NCBI GenBank assembly: GCA_002368155.1 | Contig: AP018180.1 | Coordinates: forward strand, 2,265,947 to 2,329,946 | Direction of reading: 5' to 3' | Length of the DNA: 64,000 nt | Origin: Nostoc carneum NIES-2107 | GTDB lineage: Bacteria > Cyanobacteriota > Cyanobacteriia > Cyanobacteriales > Nostocaceae | Shown here: piece by piece, positions 39,178 to 48,606 of the stretch | How the letters are laid out: each line of letters opens with the position of its first letter | How positions within the stretch are numbered: the first letter of the stretch is position 1 | Position numbers and translations under genes: made by a program | The notes under the pieces: model-generated | The model's database searches: none | Told to the model about the DNA's origin: nothing | The model's input: the letters and a program-made list of their open reading frames with translations, nothing else

Positions 39178-40428
39178 TTAGCTCACTTCCTGAACCTTTT
39201 TACTAAAGATTCGGTAGTAAAGCCAAGTGCTAACTTCCTTCAACGGAAACAGCAGATATGTTAGAGGATTAATCGACACAATAATATTGCGGAAGTCCCG
39301 CTTTGCTAAAAACAAAATCGCACGCGCTACTTGCGGCGCTGACATCACTCCATAAGGATTAAGCTGACTCTTAAACGGCCCCAGAATTAACTTGCGAATT
39401 ATACAATCCCCATCCAAACGCTTGAGGGTCACAATATCTCCGATAGCGCGTTTACTGAGTTCATAAAGAGGACTTAACGCCGGAGATACTTCAGCTTCGG
39501 AAGTGTTAACCCAAATTTCTTTAGTGGCTTTGGATTGCGGCCCGGTAACGGTTGCCAAAAATATATCCATTAACCGCAATGTAGAAAAAGTATTGACCTC
39601 ATAAGAAGACTGAATCGCGTCTGAGGTGCGGTTAGCGTAGACATTGACACCGTGATTGATAATCAAAATATCAACTTTCTCTAAAGCTGTTTTCAACTCT
39701 GCTTCTTTACCCAATTCCCAAGCAATTACAGTTAGCTTTTCTTGAGGCTGTAGCTTTTCGGGATTAGTAGTTAAGGCTACTACCTTGGCATTATTTTTAA
39801 TCAATTCCGCCGTCAATGCTTGTCCCAAAGCACCAGAAGCACCAGTTAAAGCAATCGTTTTACCTTTAAGAGATAAACCCGTTCCCAATACAGTATCTAC
39901 TAAAGGAAACACACCACTGTAATAAGCATTAACATCATCAAAATGATGTCGCCAGTGGTAAGAACGATTTACCCACCACACCGAAGGAATAGTTTCTAAT
40001 GGCCCGGGGAGGTGAGTATAATCTGTATCAATTTTACCGAGAAAATATCGCCGAGATGCGCCATATAAGAAAGTAAAAGCATAGGCTACCCCCAGCCAAA
40101 AACCCCATTGCTGGAGCAGTAAAGCCATGACAGTCAAAACTACCACCAGTAGAATTGACTCAACAATATCGTTGTATAACTGAGACTCTTGGTAAATTTT
40201 TAAAGAAACTACCGATAAATCGCGGCGATACGCCATGTGGTGCTTATTATGCCATTTACCAAGCGGGGGGACAAAGTGACACAAAGCATGATAGCTATCT
40301 CTCACTATTTCCGCCAACAACAGCGAGACTAATCCCCAACTAGCAAACTGCAAGCAGGTATTTACCAGATTCCAATTTATCTGTAATTGAGCCGCAATCT
40401 CAGCCCAGCTTTGTGCTAAAACATTCAT
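39178..40428 (-). CDS. Fused sterol desaturase-like / short-chain dehydrogenase protein
   Basis: The 416-residue protein has an N-terminal fatty-acid hydroxylase/sterol desaturase-like domain with membrane segments (about 25-45, 85-120) and histidine motifs HALCHF, HNKHH and YHWRHH that should bind a di-iron centre. From about residue 180 an SDR Rossmann domain begins (LTGASGALGQAL). The SDR catalytic Tyr-x3-Lys reads YELSK. I chose the ATG at 40428 (MNVLAQSW), since the upstream extension to 40491 covers heptamer-repeat DNA. Such two-domain proteins are known in cyanobacteria; the substrate is presumably a lipid or carotenoid but is not established. Confidence 0.85.
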   Translation of the reverse strand: MNVLAQSWAEIAAQLQINWNLVNTCLQFASWGLVSLLLAEIVRDSYHALCHFVPPLGKWHNKHHMAYRRDLSVVSLKIYQESQLYNDIVESILLVVVLTVMALLLQQWGFWLGVAYAFTFLYGASRRYFLGKIDTDYTHLPGPLETIPSVWWVNRSYHWRHHFDDVNAYYSGVFPLVDTVLGTGLSLKGKTIALTGASGALGQALTAELIKNNAKVVALTTNPEKLQPQEKLTVIAWELGKEAELKTALEKVDILIINHGVNVYANRTSDAIQSSYEVNTFSTLRLMDIFLATVTGPQSKATKEIWVNTSEAEVSPALSPLYELSKRAIGDIVTLKRLDGDCIIRKLILGPFKSQLNPYGVMSAPQVARAILFLAKRDFRNIIVSINPLTYLLFPLKEVSTWLYYRIFSKKVQEVS

Positions 40429-40973
40429 CGTAATTTTTCTGTACTTGGTTTTTATCAGCGCCAGTCCCGCTATGAAGAAGTCAAAAGTCAAAAGTCAAAA
40501 GTCAAAAGTCAAAAGACTTGATCTTCTCAGCTTTTCTTGACTTCATATTTCAGCTTTTTTGTACTAGCGCCTTGATTAACTGATCAAATAGCAGGTTAAG
40601 CACCTTAGCCATGAGTTTATCATTGACCCGTGTGAGTGGGGTTTGCAGCGGACAAGATGCGATCGCGCTTCTTCTATATACTGGTAAATATTTTTACTAA
40701 TTTCCTAAATATAAACTCTGCCAAAAAATTTGATAACTTTCATACACCGATAAACTGAAACATGGGATAAATAGGACTTGGTTTTGGTGATTATTGTTGT
40801 GTTTTGATACTAATTCGCTGAGTCATAGTCTGAATAAATTCACCTTATTTTCCAAGATTTACGTAAAATAATATAAAATTTCCAGTAAATATACATATTC
40901 GCTTTGATGTAAATATAGATAACACGGAAATTACTGTAGAGAGCAAAAGGCTTAAAATATAAAAGGATACAAA
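40429..40973. other. Spacer with GTCAAAA heptamers
   Basis: GTCAAAA units repeat at about 40479-40515 just upstream of the desaturase-SDR gene. The remaining 450 bp is AT-rich, holds no gene and should carry the promoter of the downstream EACC1-like/caspase unit. An AAGGA ribosome site lies at 40963-40967. Confidence 0.5.
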
Positions 40974-41324
40974 ATGAGTTTTAAATCTAATGTTAAACTG
41001 ACGATTGCGCTTACCAATTTAGACTTAGATGCCGAAGAGCAGGAACTTGAAGCGCGAAATCTGCTGCGAGAGATTAAAGACTTAGATGTAGAAAGTGCAG
41101 AACTCGTAGCAGTAACAGAAACACCTGAAGGGGCAAAATCTATTGGTGGGTTTTTGGCAGGAGTTTTACAGCAATTGTTAGGGTTTTTGCGCGATCGCCT
41201 GAGTAATAAATCAATTGAATTATAAGTAGAAGCTAACGGCAAGAAACTTAAAGTCAAAGCCAGCAGTCAGCAAGAGTTAGTTATGGCTATTGAACAGGCG
41301 CAGAAGTTTATAGAAGGCAGTTGA
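40974..41324 (+). pseudogene. EACC1-like small protein gene with an in-frame stop
   Basis: Reading from the ATG at 40974, 83 codons (LDLDAEEQELEARNLLREI ... GGFLAGVLQQLLGFLRDRL) end at TAA 41223-41225. The same frame continues with VEANGKKLKVKASSQQELV... to a TGA at 41322-41324, giving 116 codons if the TAA is ignored. The complete pattern (acidic helical start, PEGAKSIGG turn, hydrophobic helix, then a beta strand on ...IEL-VEANGKKLKV and a final helix) resembles the effector-associated constant component EACC1 found beside caspase-like or other effectors in bacterial conflict systems. That family match is from memory of the pattern. The stop probably inactivates it, or leaves an 83-residue product. 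It lies 30 nt upstream of the caspase gene. Confidence 0.6.
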
Positions 41325-41354: not shown

Positions 41355-41828
41355 ATGGTGAAGATAGCACTGCTAATAGGAATTAGTCAGTATCACCCTG
41401 ACCTTACTTCCTTACCAGGAGTTGAGGAAGATATAAAAGCAATGCAACGAGTATTGCAAAACCCAAATATTTGCGGTTTCGACGCAGCCAAAACGCTCCT
41501 CAATTGCGATCGCCAAAACATAGTAGATGAGATTGAGCAATTATTTTCTCATAGTGAAAAAGAAGACCTTTTACTGTTGTATTTCTCTGGTCATGGCATC
41601 AAAGATGAGTATGGTCAACTTTACTTTGCGACTAGCATTACTCGCAAAGATGAGCGAGGAAAACTTCGCAAAGCAACAGCAGTAGAAGCCAGCTTTGTCC
41701 AGAAAATTATGAGCAATAGCCGCTCGAAGCGACAAGTAGTTATTTTAGACTGTTGCTTTAGTGGAGCTTTTGCTGAAGGATTAACAAGTAAAAATGATGG
41801 TCTAGTCGATATTAAAAATCAACTATAG
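41355..41828 (+). CDS. 5' fragment: truncated caspase-family domain
   Basis: This 157-residue frame ends at a TAG supplied by the left end of the insertion element (41826-41828). It keeps the catalytic pair His80/Cys134 but lacks the last strands of the fold, so it is unlikely to be an active protease alone. Confidence 0.7.
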   Translation: MVKIALLIGISQYHPDLTSLPGVEEDIKAMQRVLQNPNICGFDAAKTLLNCDRQNIVDEIEQLFSHSEKEDLLLLYFSGHGIKDEYGQLYFATSITRKDERGKLRKATAVEASFVQKIMSNSRSKRQVVILDCCFSGAFAEGLTSKNDGLVDIKNQL

Positions 41829-41842
41829 CAATCCTAAATCAT

Positions 41843-42418
41843 TCATGAGAAAACACCATATTCATGAAGCTTAGGGAAGTTAAAAATTTGACCATGCACT
41901 GACAACTCAAATAAGGCCTTAACAACAGAAAAAGAATGACAGAGAAAATAAAACTCTCGAATCAGTCTTTTTCCTTGTAACCAAATATCTTCTACAGGAT
42001 TTTGTTGGGGTGCATGTGGGGCAAATCTTTCACAAGTTATCACCCATTCTTCTTTTTCTAAATCCGCATTCAAAGAGTCTAAATAATCTTTGATTTTTTG
42101 CGACCGATGATAACTAGCTCCATCCCAAATGATTAAAAGTTTTGCACCAGGGCGTTGTGAACGAAGATAATCCAAGAAATTAATTGTGTTTTCCGAGTTA
42201 CCTTTATTGGCAGAATAGGTGAGAAATTCCTTTGTTTTATAGTCTAATGCACCAAAGTATGTTTGTTTATCACGAGCATTGACAACTGGAATTAATATGC
42301 GCTCACTCATTTGACCCCAGATATATCCACAGATATCTCCCCAGAGTAAATGGCATTCATCAACCATGAACACAACTAGTTTGCCAGACTCGATTTCGGC
42401 TCTTCGCGTCTCCAACAA
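41843..42418 (-). CDS. IS630-family transposase, DDE catalytic part
   Basis: The 191-residue frame carries the catalytic residues of the DDE superfamily: Asp in FMVDECHLLWGD, Asp in LIIWDGASYH and Glu in NPVEDIWLQGK. It overlaps the upstream frame and lacks a DNA-binding domain, so it is probably made by frameshift at the A9 run (42431-42439, complement), as in many IS630 elements. Confidence 0.88.
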   Translation of the reverse strand: MLETRRAEIESGKLVVFMVDECHLLWGDICGYIWGQMSERILIPVVNARDKQTYFGALDYKTKEFLTYSANKGNSENTINFLDYLRSQRPGAKLLIIWDGASYHRSQKIKDYLDSLNADLEKEEWVITCERFAPHAPQQNPVEDIWLQGKRLIREFYFLCHSFSVVKALFELSVHGQIFNFPKLHEYGVFS

Positions 42419-42867
42419 TTTACTAATTTCTTTTTTTTTAAGGCAACTAATTCTGGATCATGCTTTGGATTATTAGCTTGAGCTTTCTTCCAACTAATAC
42501 GTGCTTCTTTAAACAAATCATAGTAGCTTTGTTTGGACTCAAATATCACTCCATACTTAGATGCAATTTGATACTCCAACTCATTAAGAGTCCATTGCTC
42601 CTTGGTTTGCAACCATTCAATGACAGACCGATGTTGTTGTGCATCCAAAAATCCCTTGCTGCCTTTATGTGCTAACTTTAAACCCTCAACTCCGTTTTGA
42701 AAAAATGCTTTTTTCCATGTACTTATAAAGCCTGATGAAACCCCCAATATTGGCATTATCTCTTTATGTTTATATCCACACAGCAGCATTTTGACTGCCA
42801 TTGCCCGTGTAATTTCACGTTTATCCAAGCTTTGTCTGATAAAATCTTCTAATAATTGCATCCACAT
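42376..42867 (-). CDS. IS630-family transposase, DNA-binding part
   Basis: The 163-residue frame has helix-turn-helix segments (YKHKEIMPILGVSSGFISTW and WTLNELEYQIASKYGV). A run of nine A on the coding strand near its end (LKKKKLVN) is a good slippery site for fusion to the DDE frame. Both frames look intact, so the element may still be mobile. Confidence 0.88.
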   Translation of the reverse strand: MWMQLLEDFIRQSLDKREITRAMAVKMLLCGYKHKEIMPILGVSSGFISTWKKAFFQNGVEGLKLAHKGSKGFLDAQQHRSVIEWLQTKEQWTLNELEYQIASKYGVIFESKQSYYDLFKEARISWKKAQANNPKHDPELVALKKKKLVNCWRREEPKSSLAN

Positions 42868-43133
42868 CGCTACAACTCAAAACTTGTTATAAATCATACT
42901 TTATTGCCGTCTCAGTATTTTCTCACAAATCAAATCGGATTGCTATAGGTGGAGAGGGAAGAGCAATTCTCACATCTTCGACTTCAGCCCAGTATTCTTT
43001 AGACTCGATTTACACCCGCTATCTAGTTAAAGGGCTTGAGACTGGTTTAGCAGATATAGATAATGATGGCAATATTTCAGTTGAGGAACTGCACGAATAC
43101 ACTAAACAACAAGTTCAAGAAGCTGCTCCAGCG

Positions 43134-44915
43134 ATGAAACCTGAAATATATCCTATCAAAGAAGGATTTAAAATCATCCTGGCTCAAGTACGAAATAACC
43201 CAGAGCTAATCTATCGCCAAACAGTTGAGCGTCTTTGTGCTAAAGGAGAAATTTCTGATACTGGTCGCCTCATTTTAAATACACGACGAGATACTTTAGA
43301 AATATTAGAATCAAGAGCTAAAGAAATTGAAGAAGAAGTTTTACTACCTTTCAAAACATATACCAAGCAATTGCATAAATATAAGGAGGGCTATAGTAAA
43401 GCAATTACTTCCAATAATCCTCTTAGTGAAGATACTCGTAATGAATTAAAAGAATTACAGCAAATTTTAGGGCTGAGGGATGAAGATATAATCCCAATTG
43501 AAGATGCTATAGATGCTCAGTTTAATCCTCAAAAAAGCCATTATATTAAATATTTAAAAGTATTATTTATCTGTATGATTGGCGTAACTGTAGGTGTTCC
43601 TGTTGGATACCTGGTTCGTCCGCCACTTCAAACCTGTGCTAATAAAGAGCAGTATGTTTTGAATGACAGAATTAGCTTAGGTGAAGAAATTTTACTAAAA
43701 CAAGTTACAAACTCAGATAAAGAAGCTGGAGTTCAAGCATTTGCAAAAGGTGATTGTCTGACTGCTATTTACAAGTTTGAATCTTACCGGAAAACTAATC
43801 CAACTGACCCGGAAGCATTAATTTACTTGAATAATGCTAAAGCTCGTCAGAAAGGAGATCAGCTCAAAATTGCCGTGAGTGTACCTATCGGTACAACTCA
43901 ATCTGTTGCAGAAGAGATACTGAGGGGTGCTGCTCAAGCCCAAAATGAAGTAAATAAAAGTGATGGCATTAATGGCAAACTCTTGGAGATGGCGATCGCA
44001 AATGATAATAATGACCCAACCGATGCAGTACAGATGGCCAATCAGTTTGTTAAAGACACCAAAATCTTGGCCGTAGTGGGACACAATGCTAGTAATGCCT
44101 CTATTCCTGCGGCCTATGTCTATCAAAAAAATGGGTTAGTTATGATGTCTCCTACCAGTTTTGCCCAAAATCTTTCTAATACTGGTAACTATATCTTTCG
44201 CACAGTTCCTGATGTCAGTGGAATGGCAGAGAAGCTGTCTTATTATGCTATCAATACAGCGAGAAAAACTAATATTCTGATCTGTGTTGATTCTAAAGCA
44301 GTTGATAATCAGTCCTTTAAGGATGAGTTAATCAAACATATAACATCTGCTGGTGGCAAGATTAATCCCACAATTTGTGATGTTTCTTCTCCAGATTTTA
44401 ACCCTAGTGCCGTCATTTCTCAAGCTATCAATAGTAGGGCAGATGGATTGGTATTAGGTCTCTACATTGACAAAATTAAGAAAGGTTTAGCGGTGGTACA
44501 AGCTAATAAGGGACAACTAGCACTATTCAGTAGTCCCACTCTTTATACAAGTGAAACATTAAAGGTCGGGAAAGCTAATATTGACGGTATGATAGTCGCT
44601 GCGCCTTGGCATTCTGTGGCATTTCCTAATAATCCTTTTCTGCAAAAATCGCAAAATCTTTGGCGTGCATCGGTGAACTGGCGAACAGCTACAGCTTATG
44701 ATGCAACTAAAGCAATTATCGCTGGCTTACAGCAAAATATTACACGTGACGGATTACCACAAGTACTGCACAGCCCAAATTTTGCAGTTGATGGTGCGAC
44801 AGGTAAGATTCAGTTTTCATCAAATGGCGATCGCATTAATAACCCTATATTTTTAGTCAAAGTTAAACAAAAACCTGGTAAAAATGAATATGAATTTGTA
44901 CCTGTTCAACCTTAA
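43134..44915 (+). CDS. 3' fragment: transmembrane protein with periplasmic-binding-protein domain
   Basis: From the ATG at 43134 the fragment encodes 593 residues: helical linker (VERLCAKGEISDTGR, EEEVLLPFKTYTKQL), transmembrane segment at 143-162 and an ABC-type branched-chain amino acid-binding-like domain from about 240 (IAVSVPIGTTQSVAEEILRGAA, AVVGHNASNASIPAA). No strong ribosome site precedes this ATG. It is the rear of the interrupted caspase gene rather than a transport component; no ABC permease or ATPase gene is near. Confidence 0.75.
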   Translation: MKPEIYPIKEGFKIILAQVRNNPELIYRQTVERLCAKGEISDTGRLILNTRRDTLEILESRAKEIEEEVLLPFKTYTKQLHKYKEGYSKAITSNNPLSEDTRNELKELQQILGLRDEDIIPIEDAIDAQFNPQKSHYIKYLKVLFICMIGVTVGVPVGYLVRPPLQTCANKEQYVLNDRISLGEEILLKQVTNSDKEAGVQAFAKGDCLTAIYKFESYRKTNPTDPEALIYLNNAKARQKGDQLKIAVSVPIGTTQSVAEEILRGAAQAQNEVNKSDGINGKLLEMAIANDNNDPTDAVQMANQFVKDTKILAVVGHNASNASIPAAYVYQKNGLVMMSPTSFAQNLSNTGNYIFRTVPDVSGMAEKLSYYAINTARKTNILICVDSKAVDNQSFKDELIKHITSAGGKINPTICDVSSPDFNPSAVISQAINSRADGLVLGLYIDKIKKGLAVVQANKGQLALFSSPTLYTSETLKVGKANIDGMIVAAPWHSVAFPNNPFLQKSQNLWRASVNWRTATAYDATKAIIAGLQQNITRDGLPQVLHSPNFAVDGATGKIQFSSNGDRINNPIFLVKVKQKPGKNEYEFVPVQP

Positions 44916-45194
44916 TTAAGGTAAGTTGTATTATTACTTCAGACTATGCAGCCTCATAAAGAATTGGTATAACCCTTGTTGTGTGTATCGCCAAAGTGCT
45001 GGAACTCCCAATATTTCATAGTTATTAAATCGCGTGTGTGGGTTCACCTCAACCCTTGTAACTTTTTCAAGACAAATTTTGAATTGGTATTACTTTCTGT
45101 TAAATAATTAGATATATATTGCAGTTTTTTCATTAAAATTAAAAATATAGTACAAACAAATCTAGATTTTATAACCATCCAATTTCTGCAATCT

Positions 45195-45458
45195 ATGGAA
45201 ATAACAAAAGTATCTAGTGAAGGGCAAATTATGCTTCCTGAAGAATTACTCAAAGCTTCAGGCTGGGAAATTGGGCAGGAATTAATAGCAATTAATCTAG
45301 GTGATGGTATTCTTCTTAAACCTAAGAAACCTTTTGCAGAAACCAAATTACATGATGTTGCTGGCTGCTTAAAATATGAAGGCTCACCAAAATCTTTAGA
45401 AGATATGAATTATGCTATCCGTCAAGGTGTAGAGGAATCATGGAATGGTGGCAGTTGA
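45195..45458 (+). CDS. vapB: AbrB/SpoVT-type antitoxin of a VapBC-like pair
   Basis: The 87-residue protein has an AbrB swapped-hairpin N-terminus (TKVSSEGQIMLPEELLKASGW), a variable tail and a conserved LHDVAGCLKYEG stretch that usually contacts the toxin. It overlaps the PIN-domain gene by 14 nt. Such antitoxins usually repress their own operon. Confidence 0.85.
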   Translation: MEITKVSSEGQIMLPEELLKASGWEIGQELIAINLGDGILLKPKKPFAETKLHDVAGCLKYEGSPKSLEDMNYAIRQGVEESWNGGS

Positions 45459-45834
45459 TACTAATATAATTGTACGTCTATTGACCCAAGATGATGAATT
45501 ACAGTATCGAAAGAGTCTAGAGATTTTTCAAAACCAAGATATTTTCATACCAGATACAGTTGTTCTAGAAACCGAGTGGGTACTAAGGTTTGCTTATAAG
45601 TTTAAACCTGTTGAAATATGTACAGCTTTAAGAAAGCTTTTCGGTTTGCCAAATGTCCATCTGAGTAATGCTATTCTAGTTTTTCAGGTGCTGCAATGGC
45701 ATGAATCGGGCTTAGATTTTGCTGATGCGTTTCATCTAGCCCAAAGTCAAAATCATGTAGAATTTTACACTTTTGATGAGAAATTTGTGAAAAAAGCTAA
45801 GGGTGTAACTACCTGTGAAGTCAAACTACCTTAG
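45445..45834 (+). CDS. vapC: PIN-domain RNase toxin of a VapBC-like pair
   Basis: The 129-residue PIN domain has the acidic active-site positions in VAVDTNIIVRLL (Asp5), in VVLETEWVL (Glu), in DFADAFHLA and in FYTFDEKFVKKA. VapC-type toxins cleave RNA, often tRNA. Overlap with the antitoxin frame supports coupled expression. It lies beside the disrupted caspase unit, in an island with several conflict-related genes. Confidence 0.87.
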   Translation: MVAVDTNIIVRLLTQDDELQYRKSLEIFQNQDIFIPDTVVLETEWVLRFAYKFKPVEICTALRKLFGLPNVHLSNAILVFQVLQWHESGLDFADAFHLAQSQNHVEFYTFDEKFVKKAKGVTTCEVKLP

Positions 45835-46014: not shown

Positions 46015-48606
46015 TTAATCCAGATTTTGTAAACCCATCGCAATTTTACTGTGCTTTTCGATTTGCCCCATAACTTGTTTTGCCCGTTTAATCACCACAG
46101 CTGGTAAACCCGCTAGTCTTCCCGCTTCAATACCGTAAGATTTATCAGCACCCCCTGGTTGAACTTGGTGTAAAAAGATAATTTGGTCGGGTAATTCTTT
46201 GACTGTTACTTGATAATTAGCCACATTTGCTAACATTCCCGCAAGTTCGTTTAACTCGTGATAATGGGTAGCAAAGATTGTTCTGGCTTTGATATCTGTT
46301 GCTAAATACTCAGCTACCGCCCAAGCGATGGATAGCCCATCAAAAGTTGCAGTTCCCCGGCCAATTTCATCTAAAAGTACGAGCGATCGCGATGTGGCAT
46401 GATTGAGAATATTCGCGGTTTCGTTCATCTCTACCATAAAGGTAGATTGACCTGTAGCTAAATCATCCACTGCACCCACACGGGTAAAAATGCGATCGCA
46501 AACTCCCAACTTGGCAAATCTCGCTGGCACAAAACTCCCGGTTTGCGCCATTAACTGAATTAACCCTACCTGACGCAAATAACAACTTTTGCCGCTAGCA
46601 TTGGGCCCAGTCAGAATAATTAAATCTGGGTTGTCATTTGTCATTTGTCCTTTGTCATCTGTAGCTGACTGATGACCTAATTGTGTGGAGTTAGGGACAA
46701 AGAAACCCGAAGGTATAGACTGTTCAACTACCGGATGTCGCCCATCGACAATTTGAATTTCCCGCCCAGGAACCATTTGCGGGCGACAATAGCCTTGATT
46801 TACCGCTAACTCAGCTAAACCACACAATACATCCACCGCCGCCACAGCGCGCGACAGATTGCGAATTACTTCCGCTTGTTCTCCCACTTCTTCGCGTAGG
46901 GCGACAAAAATCTCATATTCCAATTGATTTAAATCATCTCGGGCGGAAAGAATTCGGGCTTCCCGTTCTTTTAGTTCGGGAGTGATGTAACGTTCCTCAT
47001 TGGTTAGCGTCTGCTTGCGGATGTAATTACTGGGAACTTGGTCAGATTTCGCACGAGAAATACTGATGTAGTAACCAAAGGTTTTATTAAATCCTACCTT
47101 TAAAGTGGGGATACCCGTCCTCGCCCTTTCATCAACTTCCAAGTTAGCAATCCACTGCTGATCCGCTTCTACAGTAGCTTTGCTTTCATCCAATAAATTA
47201 TTTACACCAGAGCGAATCAAACCGCCTTCTTTAATATGTATGGGTGGCGACTCAACAATATGGGCGTGTAATTTTTGTGCCAACTCTTCTAATTTTGCGG
47301 GTACTTTCTGCAAAGCCCTCAAGAAGGGAGAAGCAGCTTCACTGACTAACTCTGATAATTCTGGTAGGCGGGAAAGAGAATCGGCTAAAGCGACTAAATC
47401 TTTAGCATTTGCAGTCCCCGAACCAGCCCTACCTGTTAACCGTTCCAAGTCATAAATTTGCCGGAGTAACTGCCGCAAATCTTGACGTAACGCTGTATTT
47501 TCGACTAATTCTTGAATGGTTTCTTGCCTAGCTTGAATGCCTTTAATATCGATGAGTGGTTGGAGTAACCACCGCCGCAAAGCCCGCCCGCCCATTGCAG
47601 TGTTAGTTCTATCTAGCGCCCAAAGTAGAGAACCGTGAAAAGTACCATCGCGAACCGTTTGGGTAATTTCTAAGTTACGCCGGGTTTGATGGTCAACAAT
47701 GAGATAATCTGTAACCGTATAGGTGCGTAATAACTGCAACGGAACGGAGTTTTCTTTTTGTGTATCTTCCAAATATTCTAAAAGACCACCAGCCGCCCGC
47801 ACAGCTAAGGGTAGGTGTTCACAACCCAGACCTTCGAGCGATCGCACTTTGAATTTCTGCAATAATCTACTTCTAGCTTCCCCAGCAGAAAACGGCACTT
47901 GCGATCGCAAACTATAACAAAATGCTGGCGGTAAACATTGCGGCAGATGGGGCGAAGTTTCTCCCGGACGCAATATGCTACCTAAATCTGGCGCATTCGT
48001 GGGAAACAGCACTTCGGAAGGCTGTAAACGCATTAATTCTTGAGTGAGGTGTTCTAAATCACTTCCTTGAGTTGTGAGAAATTCCCCTGTTGATATATCT
48101 GCATAGGCTAAACCCCAATGATTAGCCGCAATTACCACAGCCGCTAAGTAATTATTGCGACTAGCTTTTAGCATTCCTTCTTCCAGCAACGTCCCAGGAG
48201 TAAGGATACGTGTCACCTCACGCCGTACCAAACCCACAGCTTCGGAAGCATCTTCTACTTGGTCACAAATCACCACAGCGTAGCCTTTCTCTACCAGTTG
48301 GGTAGTGTAGCGTTCCCAAGCGTGGTGAGGTACACCAGTCATCGCCACCCGTCCAACTTCACCACCGTGTTTGCTAGTTAGAACTAGTTCCAGTTCGCGA
48401 GATACAGTAACAGCATCTTGGAAAAAAGTTTCAAAGAAATCCCCTACCCGATATAGCAGCAGCGCATGAGGATACTTATCCTTCATTTCTACATAATGCT
48501 GATACATCTTGCTCAACTTGCTGCGGTCTACCAGTCGCGTGTCCGAGTGAGGCGCAGTTGGATGATTGGATTCCGTTGGCTGAAATTCAGAATCAAAAGC
48601 TGTCAT
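46015..48606 (-). CDS. mutS: DNA mismatch repair protein MutS
   Basis: The 863-residue MutS recognises mismatches and small loops. Seen: mismatch-binding domain I with GDFFETFF (the Phe-x-Glu wedge), connector, core and clamp domains, Walker [10 protein letters not shown] and Walker [11 protein letters not shown] in the ATPase. Directly before Walker A an in-frame insertion from short repeats (46629-46682) adds about 15 residues ([13 protein letters not shown]). Length is otherwise normal. Confidence 0.95.
46629..46682. repeat. TTGTCAT-type heptamers inside mutS
   Basis: Degenerate TTGTCAT/TTGTCCT units, which are common intergenic repeats here (also near 55045-55085), lie in frame between the domain ending VPNSTQL and the Walker A strand. 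The insert avoids stops on the coding strand. Confidence 0.75.

What the first reader, a model, noticed from the sequence alone, without database searches (positions are those of the whole stretch)
41355..44915. Ligand-sensing transmembrane caspase gene cut by an IS630 element; excision restores the frame exactly
The two open frames are parts of one gene. Joining 41825 to 42948 (removing the element and one TA) yields ...DIKNQL|GGEGRAIL... and 812 codons with no stop. The protein would combine a cytosolic caspase/C14 protease with an extracytoplasmic periplasmic-binding-type receptor through one membrane segment. A receptor-type caspase is an attractive design for regulated cell death triggered by an external small molecule. 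Annotation as two separate genes would hide it.
Basis: partly seen in the sequence, partly recalled or inferred. Interest (0 to 1): 0.85.

Follow-up and report, generated by a model that had tools for sequence, protein, structure and literature searches.

The report
Broken membrane receptor-protease gene pair
A cyanobacterial gene that would join a caspase-like protease inside the cell to a small-molecule-binding receptor outside it has been cut by a jumping gene; this type of receptor is already known, intact versions occur in related Nostoc strains, and here its partner gene is broken too.

Summary
An IS630-type element (41826-42945, flanked by TA) splits one gene. Without it, 41355-44915 reads as 812 uninterrupted codons: caspase, helical linker, one membrane segment, type-I periplasmic-binding domain. 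A sister species (G004) has the empty site exactly there. Eleven uninterrupted homologs were found (5 unnamed relatives, 6 named Nostocales).

(1) The architecture is in print: ANF-receptor/Peripla_BP_6 caspases in cyanobacteria and PBP-bearing EACC1 caspases. (3) G004's receptor gene appears cut by a different IS (its ends are seen, its middle is unassembled), so excision here would not restore a working pair.

New here: the binding-protein half is exchanged between caspase halves (AU tests). The fused receptor is 40% identical between two strains whose stand-alone binding protein is 96% identical. The cyanobacterial EACC1 stays below Pfam's cut-off. Ligand, activation and cell death are inferred, not shown.

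The parts
40974..41322 (+). EACC1-like partner gene, broken: in-frame TAA at 41223-41225 and 27 nt missing relative to relatives
   Evidence: intact 125-aa homologs directly upstream of intact fusions; profile-profile match to actinobacterial EACC1-position genes
41355..41825 (+). N-terminal part of the caspase domain with both catalytic motifs (residues 1-157)
   Evidence: Pfam Peptidase_C14 E 1.4e-18; NCBIfam caspase_w_EACC1 140.2 bits, 138.6 in the six-frame search, cut-off 140
41824..41825 (.). TA target copy, left
41826..42945 (-). IS630-type insertion sequence, 1120 bp; one of 6 identical full copies in the genome
42376..42867 (-). transposase frame 1 (winged-helix/HTH half)
41843..42418 (-). 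transposase frame 2 (DDE half)
42946..42947 (.). TA target copy, right
42948..43151 (+). rest of the caspase domain (residues 158-225)
   Evidence: Pfam C14 spans this part in intact homologs
43152..43541 (+). helical linker (about residues 226-355), shared with other caspases of this class
   Evidence: helices in the low-confidence model of the L171 homolog
43560..43616 (+). single membrane segment (residues 362-380)
   Evidence: hydropathy 2.33; one such segment in 12 of 12 fusions
43866..44870 (+). type-I periplasmic binding domain (Peripla_BP_6)
   Evidence: Pfam E 9.8e-32; PDB amino-acid-binding proteins, best E 2e-17
44955..45056 (-). relic of the 212-aa neighbour gene that stands beside the fusion in relatives
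   Evidence: tblastn, 34 residues, 62%

Best explanation
This is a dead copy of an EACC1-caspase two-gene system of the receptor type. SHOWN: in most intact relatives an upstream EACC1-like gene is followed about 30 nt later by one chain of caspase (dyad kept), helical linker, one membrane segment and a type-I amino-acid-binding-type periplasmic domain; in this strain both genes are broken, EACC1 by a deletion and a nonsense codon shared with a sister species, the fusion by a recent IS630 insertion. INFERRED: in intact strains the periplasmic domain binds a small molecule, probably an amino acid or a similar compound, and its closing is passed through the membrane helix and linker to cluster or switch on the cytosolic caspase; EACC1 takes part as adaptor or licensing factor; the protease then cleaves targets after basic residues and stops or kills the cell. 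The receptor half diversifies and is exchanged between strains, as expected for a recognition part, and the pair is easily lost.
For: One gene and the insertion. Intact fusions: G012, G005, G007, G024, G003 and 6 of the 8 named loci. EACC1-like gene upstream: intact in 4 of those 5 (G024 keeps a remnant) and in 6 of 6 named. NCBIfam caspase_w_EACC1 over cut-off in 10 of 10 proteins scanned for it: G012 and G003; window left piece (140.2 against 140), G004, L171, L173, L176, L170, L172, G024. EACC1 kinship: hhalign 97%, E 9.1e-11. Sensor reading: the same binding module also sits behind CHAT (caspase-clan, recalled) domains (3), protein kinases (4) and AAA-type ATPases (2) in 10 other fusions scanned, the tenth being a double binding domain (two further long ones seen were not scanned). 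C-terminal partners among 73 caspases of this class: GUN4 22, FGE-sulfatase 20, Peripla_BP_6 8, EAL 5, WD40 2. Exchange of the receptor half: the PBP tree joins L170+L176 at 100/100; caspase data reject that pair (p-AU 1.6e-4) and PBP data reject L170 with L169+L171 (p-AU 1.4e-32). Locus turnover.
Against: No ligand, protease activity, topology or death was tested. Charges around the membrane segment do not settle topology. The cyanobacterial EACC1 lacks a clear membrane helix (best hydropathy 0.56-1.54 in 10 of 10, against 1.84-1.86 in 3 of 3 actinobacterial). No member reached Pfam's EACC1 cut-off: 4 of 4 scanned had no EACC1 match at E 0.5; best anywhere 22.7 against 23.6. 26 of 75 caspases of the class have no detectable EACC1 upstream, so EACC1 is not needed by all. 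In the six-frame search the window's own piece scores 138.6, below the cut-off. The AlphaFold model of an intact homolog is poor (pLDDT 61, pTM 0.38). The clades of the AU tests were chosen after identities had been seen.
Confidence: 0.62

Rival explanations
1. The C-terminal domain is not a sensor but one of the exchangeable effectors of the EACC1 system; EACC1 senses the invader and the caspase frees the attached domain by self-cleavage (the reading of Kaur and colleagues for the system in general).
For: That paper's passages propose EACC1 as membrane-associated sensor and the variable C-termini as effectors deployed by autoproteolysis. EACC1 is the less diverged partner (by dS) in two of four close pairs compared, G000/G003 and G005/G007; in G000/G004 and L169/L171 the fusion is.
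Against: A periplasmic binding domain behind a membrane helix is not an obvious effector. The same module stands behind kinases, CHAT domains and ATPases. Cyanobacterial EACC1 has no clear membrane helix.
Confidence: 0.2
2. The fusion is a membrane-tethered solute scavenger or nutrient sensor, and the caspase acts as a regulatory protease in ordinary metabolism, with no role in cell death or conflict.
For: The nearest solved relatives are amino-acid-binding proteins of transporters. A stand-alone relative about 60% identical to the fused domain is conserved at 96-98% in four strains of the genus.
Against: The fused version is only 40% identical between G000 and G003 at the same locus, is exchanged, and is absent or broken in several strains, unlike housekeeping genes.
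Confidence: 0.15
3. The two pieces still work separately in this strain: a short caspase fragment and a membrane-anchored binding protein without protease.
For: Both reading frames remain open. The right piece keeps linker, membrane segment and binding domain.
Against: The insertion is recent (6 identical copies), so open frames need no selection. The left piece lacks the last third of the caspase domain. EACC1 is broken, and G004's gene appears interrupted at another point.
Confidence: 0.05

Closest known systems
EACC1 two-gene conflict system (Kaur et al. 2020, PMC7159879; passages seen)
   Same: 5' EACC1-like gene and 3' gene with N-terminal caspase and variable C-terminus; TM helix plus extracellular PBP domain is named there as one variant.
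   Different: The passage gives the system as prevalent in actinobacteria and sporadic in proteobacteria; these are Nostocales, with an EACC1 below Pfam's cut-off and without a clear membrane helix. The copy here is broken.
ANF-receptor / Peripla_BP_6 orthocaspases of cyanobacteria (Jiang et al. 2010, PMC2853523; PMC8283722 Table 1; passages seen)
   Same: Caspase and ANF/Peripla_BP_6 domain in one protein; one in Nostoc punctiforme PCC 73102 (2010); Peripla_BP_6 in 8 of 473 orthocaspases (2021).
   Different: The passages I saw do not mention EACC1, exchange of receptor halves, or repeated loss.
Extrinsic cell-death model for membrane orthocaspases (PMC7475262, Fig. 6 legend and section 11; passages seen)
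   Same: Already proposes that a ligand bound to an extracellular ANF domain triggers caspase autocatalysis.
   Different: A proposal without experiment, and its own 98 sequences held no ANF domain; no EACC1 in the passages seen.
IS630 family insertion sequence
   Same: TA duplication, inverted ends, IS630 transposase profile.
   Different: Nothing unusual; transposase in two overlapping frames.

Membership tests
EACC1 two-gene system | Caspase of the EACC1-associated class | tested here: met
   NF047832 over cut-off 140: G012 180.9, G003 179.4; seven further full or partial homologs 162-181 bits. Window left piece alone 140.2 but 138.6 in the six-frame search
EACC1 two-gene system | EACC1 gene directly upstream | tested here: met
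   Intact in 4 of 5 unnamed and 6 of 6 named intact fusions; in the window present but broken. Homology by hhalign 97%; by Pfam's own rule not met, best 22.7 against cut-off 23.6
EACC1 two-gene system | Single conserved membrane helix in EACC1 | tested here: not met
   Best 19-residue hydropathy 0.56-1.54 in 10 of 10 cyanobacterial members, below 1.6; 1.84-1.86 in 3 of 3 actinobacterial. A hydropathy scan only; this may be a soluble branch
EACC1 two-gene system | Variable C-terminal domains on a constant caspase | tested here: met
   GUN4 22, FGE-sulfatase 20, Peripla_BP_6 8, EAL 5, WD40 2 of 73
Peptidase C14 / orthocaspase | Caspase domain with His-Cys dyad | tested here: met
   Pfam C14; SGHG and DCCFSG in 12 of 12 fusions including the window
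Peptidase C14 / orthocaspase | Proteolysis after basic residues | not testable with these tools
   Specificity seen only in the abstract start of PMC6426788 in a search listing
Type-I periplasmic binding protein (LIV/amino-acid type) | Sequence family | tested here: met
   Pfam Peripla_BP_6 E 9.8e-32; PDB 3ipc, 3ip5, 4n0q, 2liv
Type-I periplasmic binding protein (LIV/amino-acid type) | Binds an amino acid or similar ligand | not testable with these tools
   No ligand data; the model is too poor for a pocket analysis
IS630 family | TA target duplication, inverted ends, IS630 DDE transposase | tested here: met
   TA on both sides in 6 of 6 full copies; profile scores of the two halves 69.6 and 95.5 bits, each below the whole-protein cut-off of 100

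The most novel reading that the evidence does not exclude
Nostoc strains carry an allelic set of receptor-caspases in which the outside recognition half is swapped between strains while the EACC1-caspase chassis stays, and null alleles are common: a bacterial recognition locus with exchangeable ligand specificity, possibly for self/non-self or kin-dependent cell death in filaments.
Probability: 0.2. Interest if true: 0.75.

Novelty: new member of a known kind. Interest (0 to 1): 0.36.

Why it matters
The single copy is an ordinary pseudogene of a published architecture. Its relatives give a usable test bed: intact, single-chain receptor-caspases with a small partner gene, whose receptor halves have been exchanged by nature. 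With these one can ask whether a bacterial caspase is switched by an outside ligand, and whether EACC1 is an activator or a brake. A broken EACC1 beside an open caspase frame is seen (G024; G004 up to its IS; G029, which runs off its contig), and an intact EACC1 beside a cut-short caspase too (G031, L156). That argues against EACC1 being an indispensable antidote.

Tried and rejected
Rejected: (1) two separate genes: the empty site in G004 and colinear homologs exclude it. (2) Relaxed selection shown by dN/dS: G000 against G004 gives 0.46, but intact pairs give 0.35 and 0.30, so no clear relaxation. The low dS of the fusion (0.027, against 0.17 and 0.28 in two neighbouring genes) instead suggests a recent exchange of this allele. 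(3) The downstream toxin-antitoxin-like pair (45195-45834) as part of the system: no match in the relatives' loci compared. (4) EACC1 as obligatory antidote: see Why it matters. (5) PADLOC: only a generic caspase model matched. (6) Structure: the model of the L171 homolog is too weak to use beyond secondary structure; I ran no fold search on it. (7) Full-text searches 'orthocaspase + cyanobacteria + periplasmic binding' and 'caspase + cyanobacteria + receptor family ligand binding' found nothing, and passages of PMC4933709 held nothing on such a domain; the prior art appeared under ANF and Peripla_BP_6.
Full report
The site. The window lies in a 9.36-Mb genome (G000:C1:2265947-2329946). At 41826-42945 an IS630-type element stands between two TA copies, with inverted ends beginning TAGCAATCC. 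Six full, identical copies, each TA-flanked, and one split copy are in the genome. In the seven other genomes of the genus no full copy was found; the best is 88% over 763 of 1120 bases, in G003. Several of those assemblies are fragmented and show 91-94% end pieces at contig ends, so related elements there may be unassembled. The identity of the six copies makes the insertion look recent. Joining 41825 to 42948 gives 812 codons without a stop. G004 has the sequence without the element exactly at that junction.

The protein. Caspase: Pfam C14 E 1.4e-18 for the left piece alone. Binding domain: Peripla_BP_6 E 9.8e-32, nearest in PDB to amino-acid-binding proteins such as 3ipc/3ip5, 4n0q and 2liv. 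One strong hydrophobic segment lies at residues 362-380; one such segment is found in 12 of 12 fusions (window included), with the dyad motifs in all 12. The charges around it do not decide topology; caspase inside and binding domain outside is inferred from the domains.

Intact relatives. Of 58 genomes searched with the right piece (own genome included), 54 have some match, mostly to other proteins with the same binding domain. Twenty regions were fetched. Five hold a full uninterrupted fusion of this subfamily: G012, G005, G007, G024, G003. The named collection gave 8 loci, of which 6 hold a full uninterrupted fusion (L169-L173, L176). L174 matches in two segments in different frames and lacks the receptor end; L175 keeps only about the last 85 residues. 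Counting also the window, G004, G029 and G031, 17 loci of this subfamily were seen: 11 uninterrupted, 5 broken (window, G004, G031, L174, L175), 1 undecided (G029 runs off its contig). A more distant caspase with the same binding domain is in G002 (L151); long open frames in some other relatives were not classified.

At 40974-41322 lies a small gene whose relatives (125 aa) stand about 30 nt before intact fusions. In the window it has an in-frame TAA and lacks 27 nt; G004 has both lesions. It belongs with EACC1. A profile of 10 cyanobacterial members against 3 actinobacterial genes that stand before caspases gives 97% probability, E 9.1e-11; of those three, one passes Pfam's EACC1 cut-off, one is weak, one has no match. 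Against that: four cyanobacterial members scanned with Pfam had no EACC1 match at E 0.5, the best member scores 22.7 bits against 23.6, and a Pfam EACC1 search of 58 genomes finds 2 weak matches and none over cut-off, with one weak match among 14 control genomes. NCBIfam's caspase_w_EACC1 rings over cut-off in 24 of the 58 genomes and in 0 of 14 controls.

How general the pairing is. I took 75 caspase ORFs (120 bits or more to my own profile) from fetched loci. Forty-three had an EACC1-like ORF upstream, some of them shortened. A second look at 700 bases upstream plus 120 bases of the gene, in three frames, found a match in 49 of 75: those 43, three ORFs that overlap the called caspase start (L114, L133, L146), and three remnants, two of them weak (L056; L111 and L112). 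None was found in 26. Seventy-three of the 75 were scanned with Pfam; L063 and L156, both truncated, were left out.

Repeated loss. In G004 one contig ends and another begins inside a different element at codon 711 of the fusion, with 16-bp matching inverted ends and a 4-bp duplication CTTG; the same 101-base end occurs five times in G004, at contig ends or edges. Its middle is not assembled, so the second IS rests on its ends. The EACC1 lesions are shared by both strains; the IS insertions are not.

Turnover at the locus. Between G000 and G004 dS is 0.277 in the MutS-like gene (named by eye) at 46015-48606 and 0.166 in the gene at 39178-40491, but 0.055 in EACC1 and 0.027 in the fusion, so this allele was probably exchanged recently between lineages. 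G003 has the same neighbours but a different fusion: EACC1 dS 0.146, caspase dS about 1.8, caspase identity 63%, receptor identity 40%. A stand-alone binding protein of the same family is 96-98% identical among G000, G002, G003 and G006 (G001 was not recovered by my script). In G006 the place beside the 39178-40491 gene holds what looks by eye like a histidine kinase; in G002 no trace of the pair was found in the stretches fetched. In the named pair L169/L171 the fusion is the conserved part (dS 0.054 in caspase and linker) and EACC1 the diverged one (dS 0.451), so the two genes seem to exchange independently. dN/dS of the window/G004 pair (0.46) is not clearly above intact pairs (0.35, 0.30), so decay by relaxed selection is not shown.

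Exchange of the receptor half. Pairwise identities are uneven: L170 and L171 share 82% in the caspase and 22% in residues 581-715 of the chain; L170 and L176 share 65% and 55%. Trees of 12 rows: the binding domain joins L170+L176 at 100/100; caspase plus linker places L170 with L173 (88/88). The caspase data reject L170+L176 (p-AU 1.6e-4) and the binding-domain data reject L170 with L169+L171 (p-AU 1.4e-32). The groups were named after the identities had been seen, and L176 and the window row are long branches in the caspase tree, G003 in the other. The least conserved 20-residue blocks of the chain (0.33-0.37 mean identity) all lie within residues 581-680, in the binding domain; parts of the linker reach 0.42.

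How it would work. A binding domain outside, one helix, and a protease inside is the plan of a receptor. The same module stands behind CHAT domains, protein kinases and AAA ATPases (10 fusions scanned), which favours sensor over effector. The published view of the EACC1 system makes EACC1 the sensor and the C-terminus the effector. My preference for the receptor reading rests on the module's company and on the lack of a clear membrane helix in these EACC1 proteins. Ligand, activation and outcome are inferred.

What is known. Jiang 2010 lists an ANF-receptor metacaspase in Nostoc punctiforme PCC 73102 (passages). PLoS One 2012 (PMC3501461) mentions ANF_receptor among cyanobacterial metacaspase architectures (passages). 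Frontiers 2021 (PMC8283722) counts Peripla_BP_6 in 8 of 473 orthocaspases (passages). J Exp Bot 2020 (PMC7475262) proposes ligand-triggered autocatalysis through ANF domains (passages). Kaur 2020 (PMC7159879) names TM plus PBP among EACC1-caspase architectures (passages). In the held library the EACC1 system appears in two papers, Kaur 2020 and PMC8195603 of 2021 (the other 11 listings look like unrelated uses of the letters, judged from titles). I did not find cyanobacterial EACC1, or exchange of receptor halves, in the passages seen; that is not proof of absence.

Verdict. It is a broken member of a published kind, with a broken partner. The exchangeable receptor half is the part worth following.

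Noticed in passing
window 45195-45834: MazE/AbrB-like plus PIN toxin-antitoxin-like pair directly downstream; [quoted passage not shown]
   Followed up: partly
window 44955-45056: Short relic of the 212-aa gene that stands near the fusion in several relatives.
   Followed up: partly
L180 (Nostoc 'Lobaria pulmonaria' plasmid pNLP1): A gene of 9174 nt annotated as caspase family protein, with a binding-protein domain at its C-terminal end, on a plasmid typed as conjugative.
   Followed up: no
L060:4007-7732, L061:6013-8814: Proteins with two binding domains in tandem, one of them (L060) behind a CHAT domain.
   Followed up: no
L062:1559-4309, L070:7056-9779: Binding domain fused behind AAA-type ATPases: further receptor-like fusions with a different inner part.
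   Followed up: no
L051 end / L052 start (G004): Ends of a different IS with CTTG duplication in the same gene of the sister species; middle of the element not assembled.
   Followed up: partly
L146:1178-5308 (this genome): A 1377-aa caspase of the EACC1 class whose called start overlaps an EACC1-like ORF. This genome has 17 caspase_w_EACC1 matches at E 1e-20; 7 of those listed are over the cut-off.
   Followed up: no
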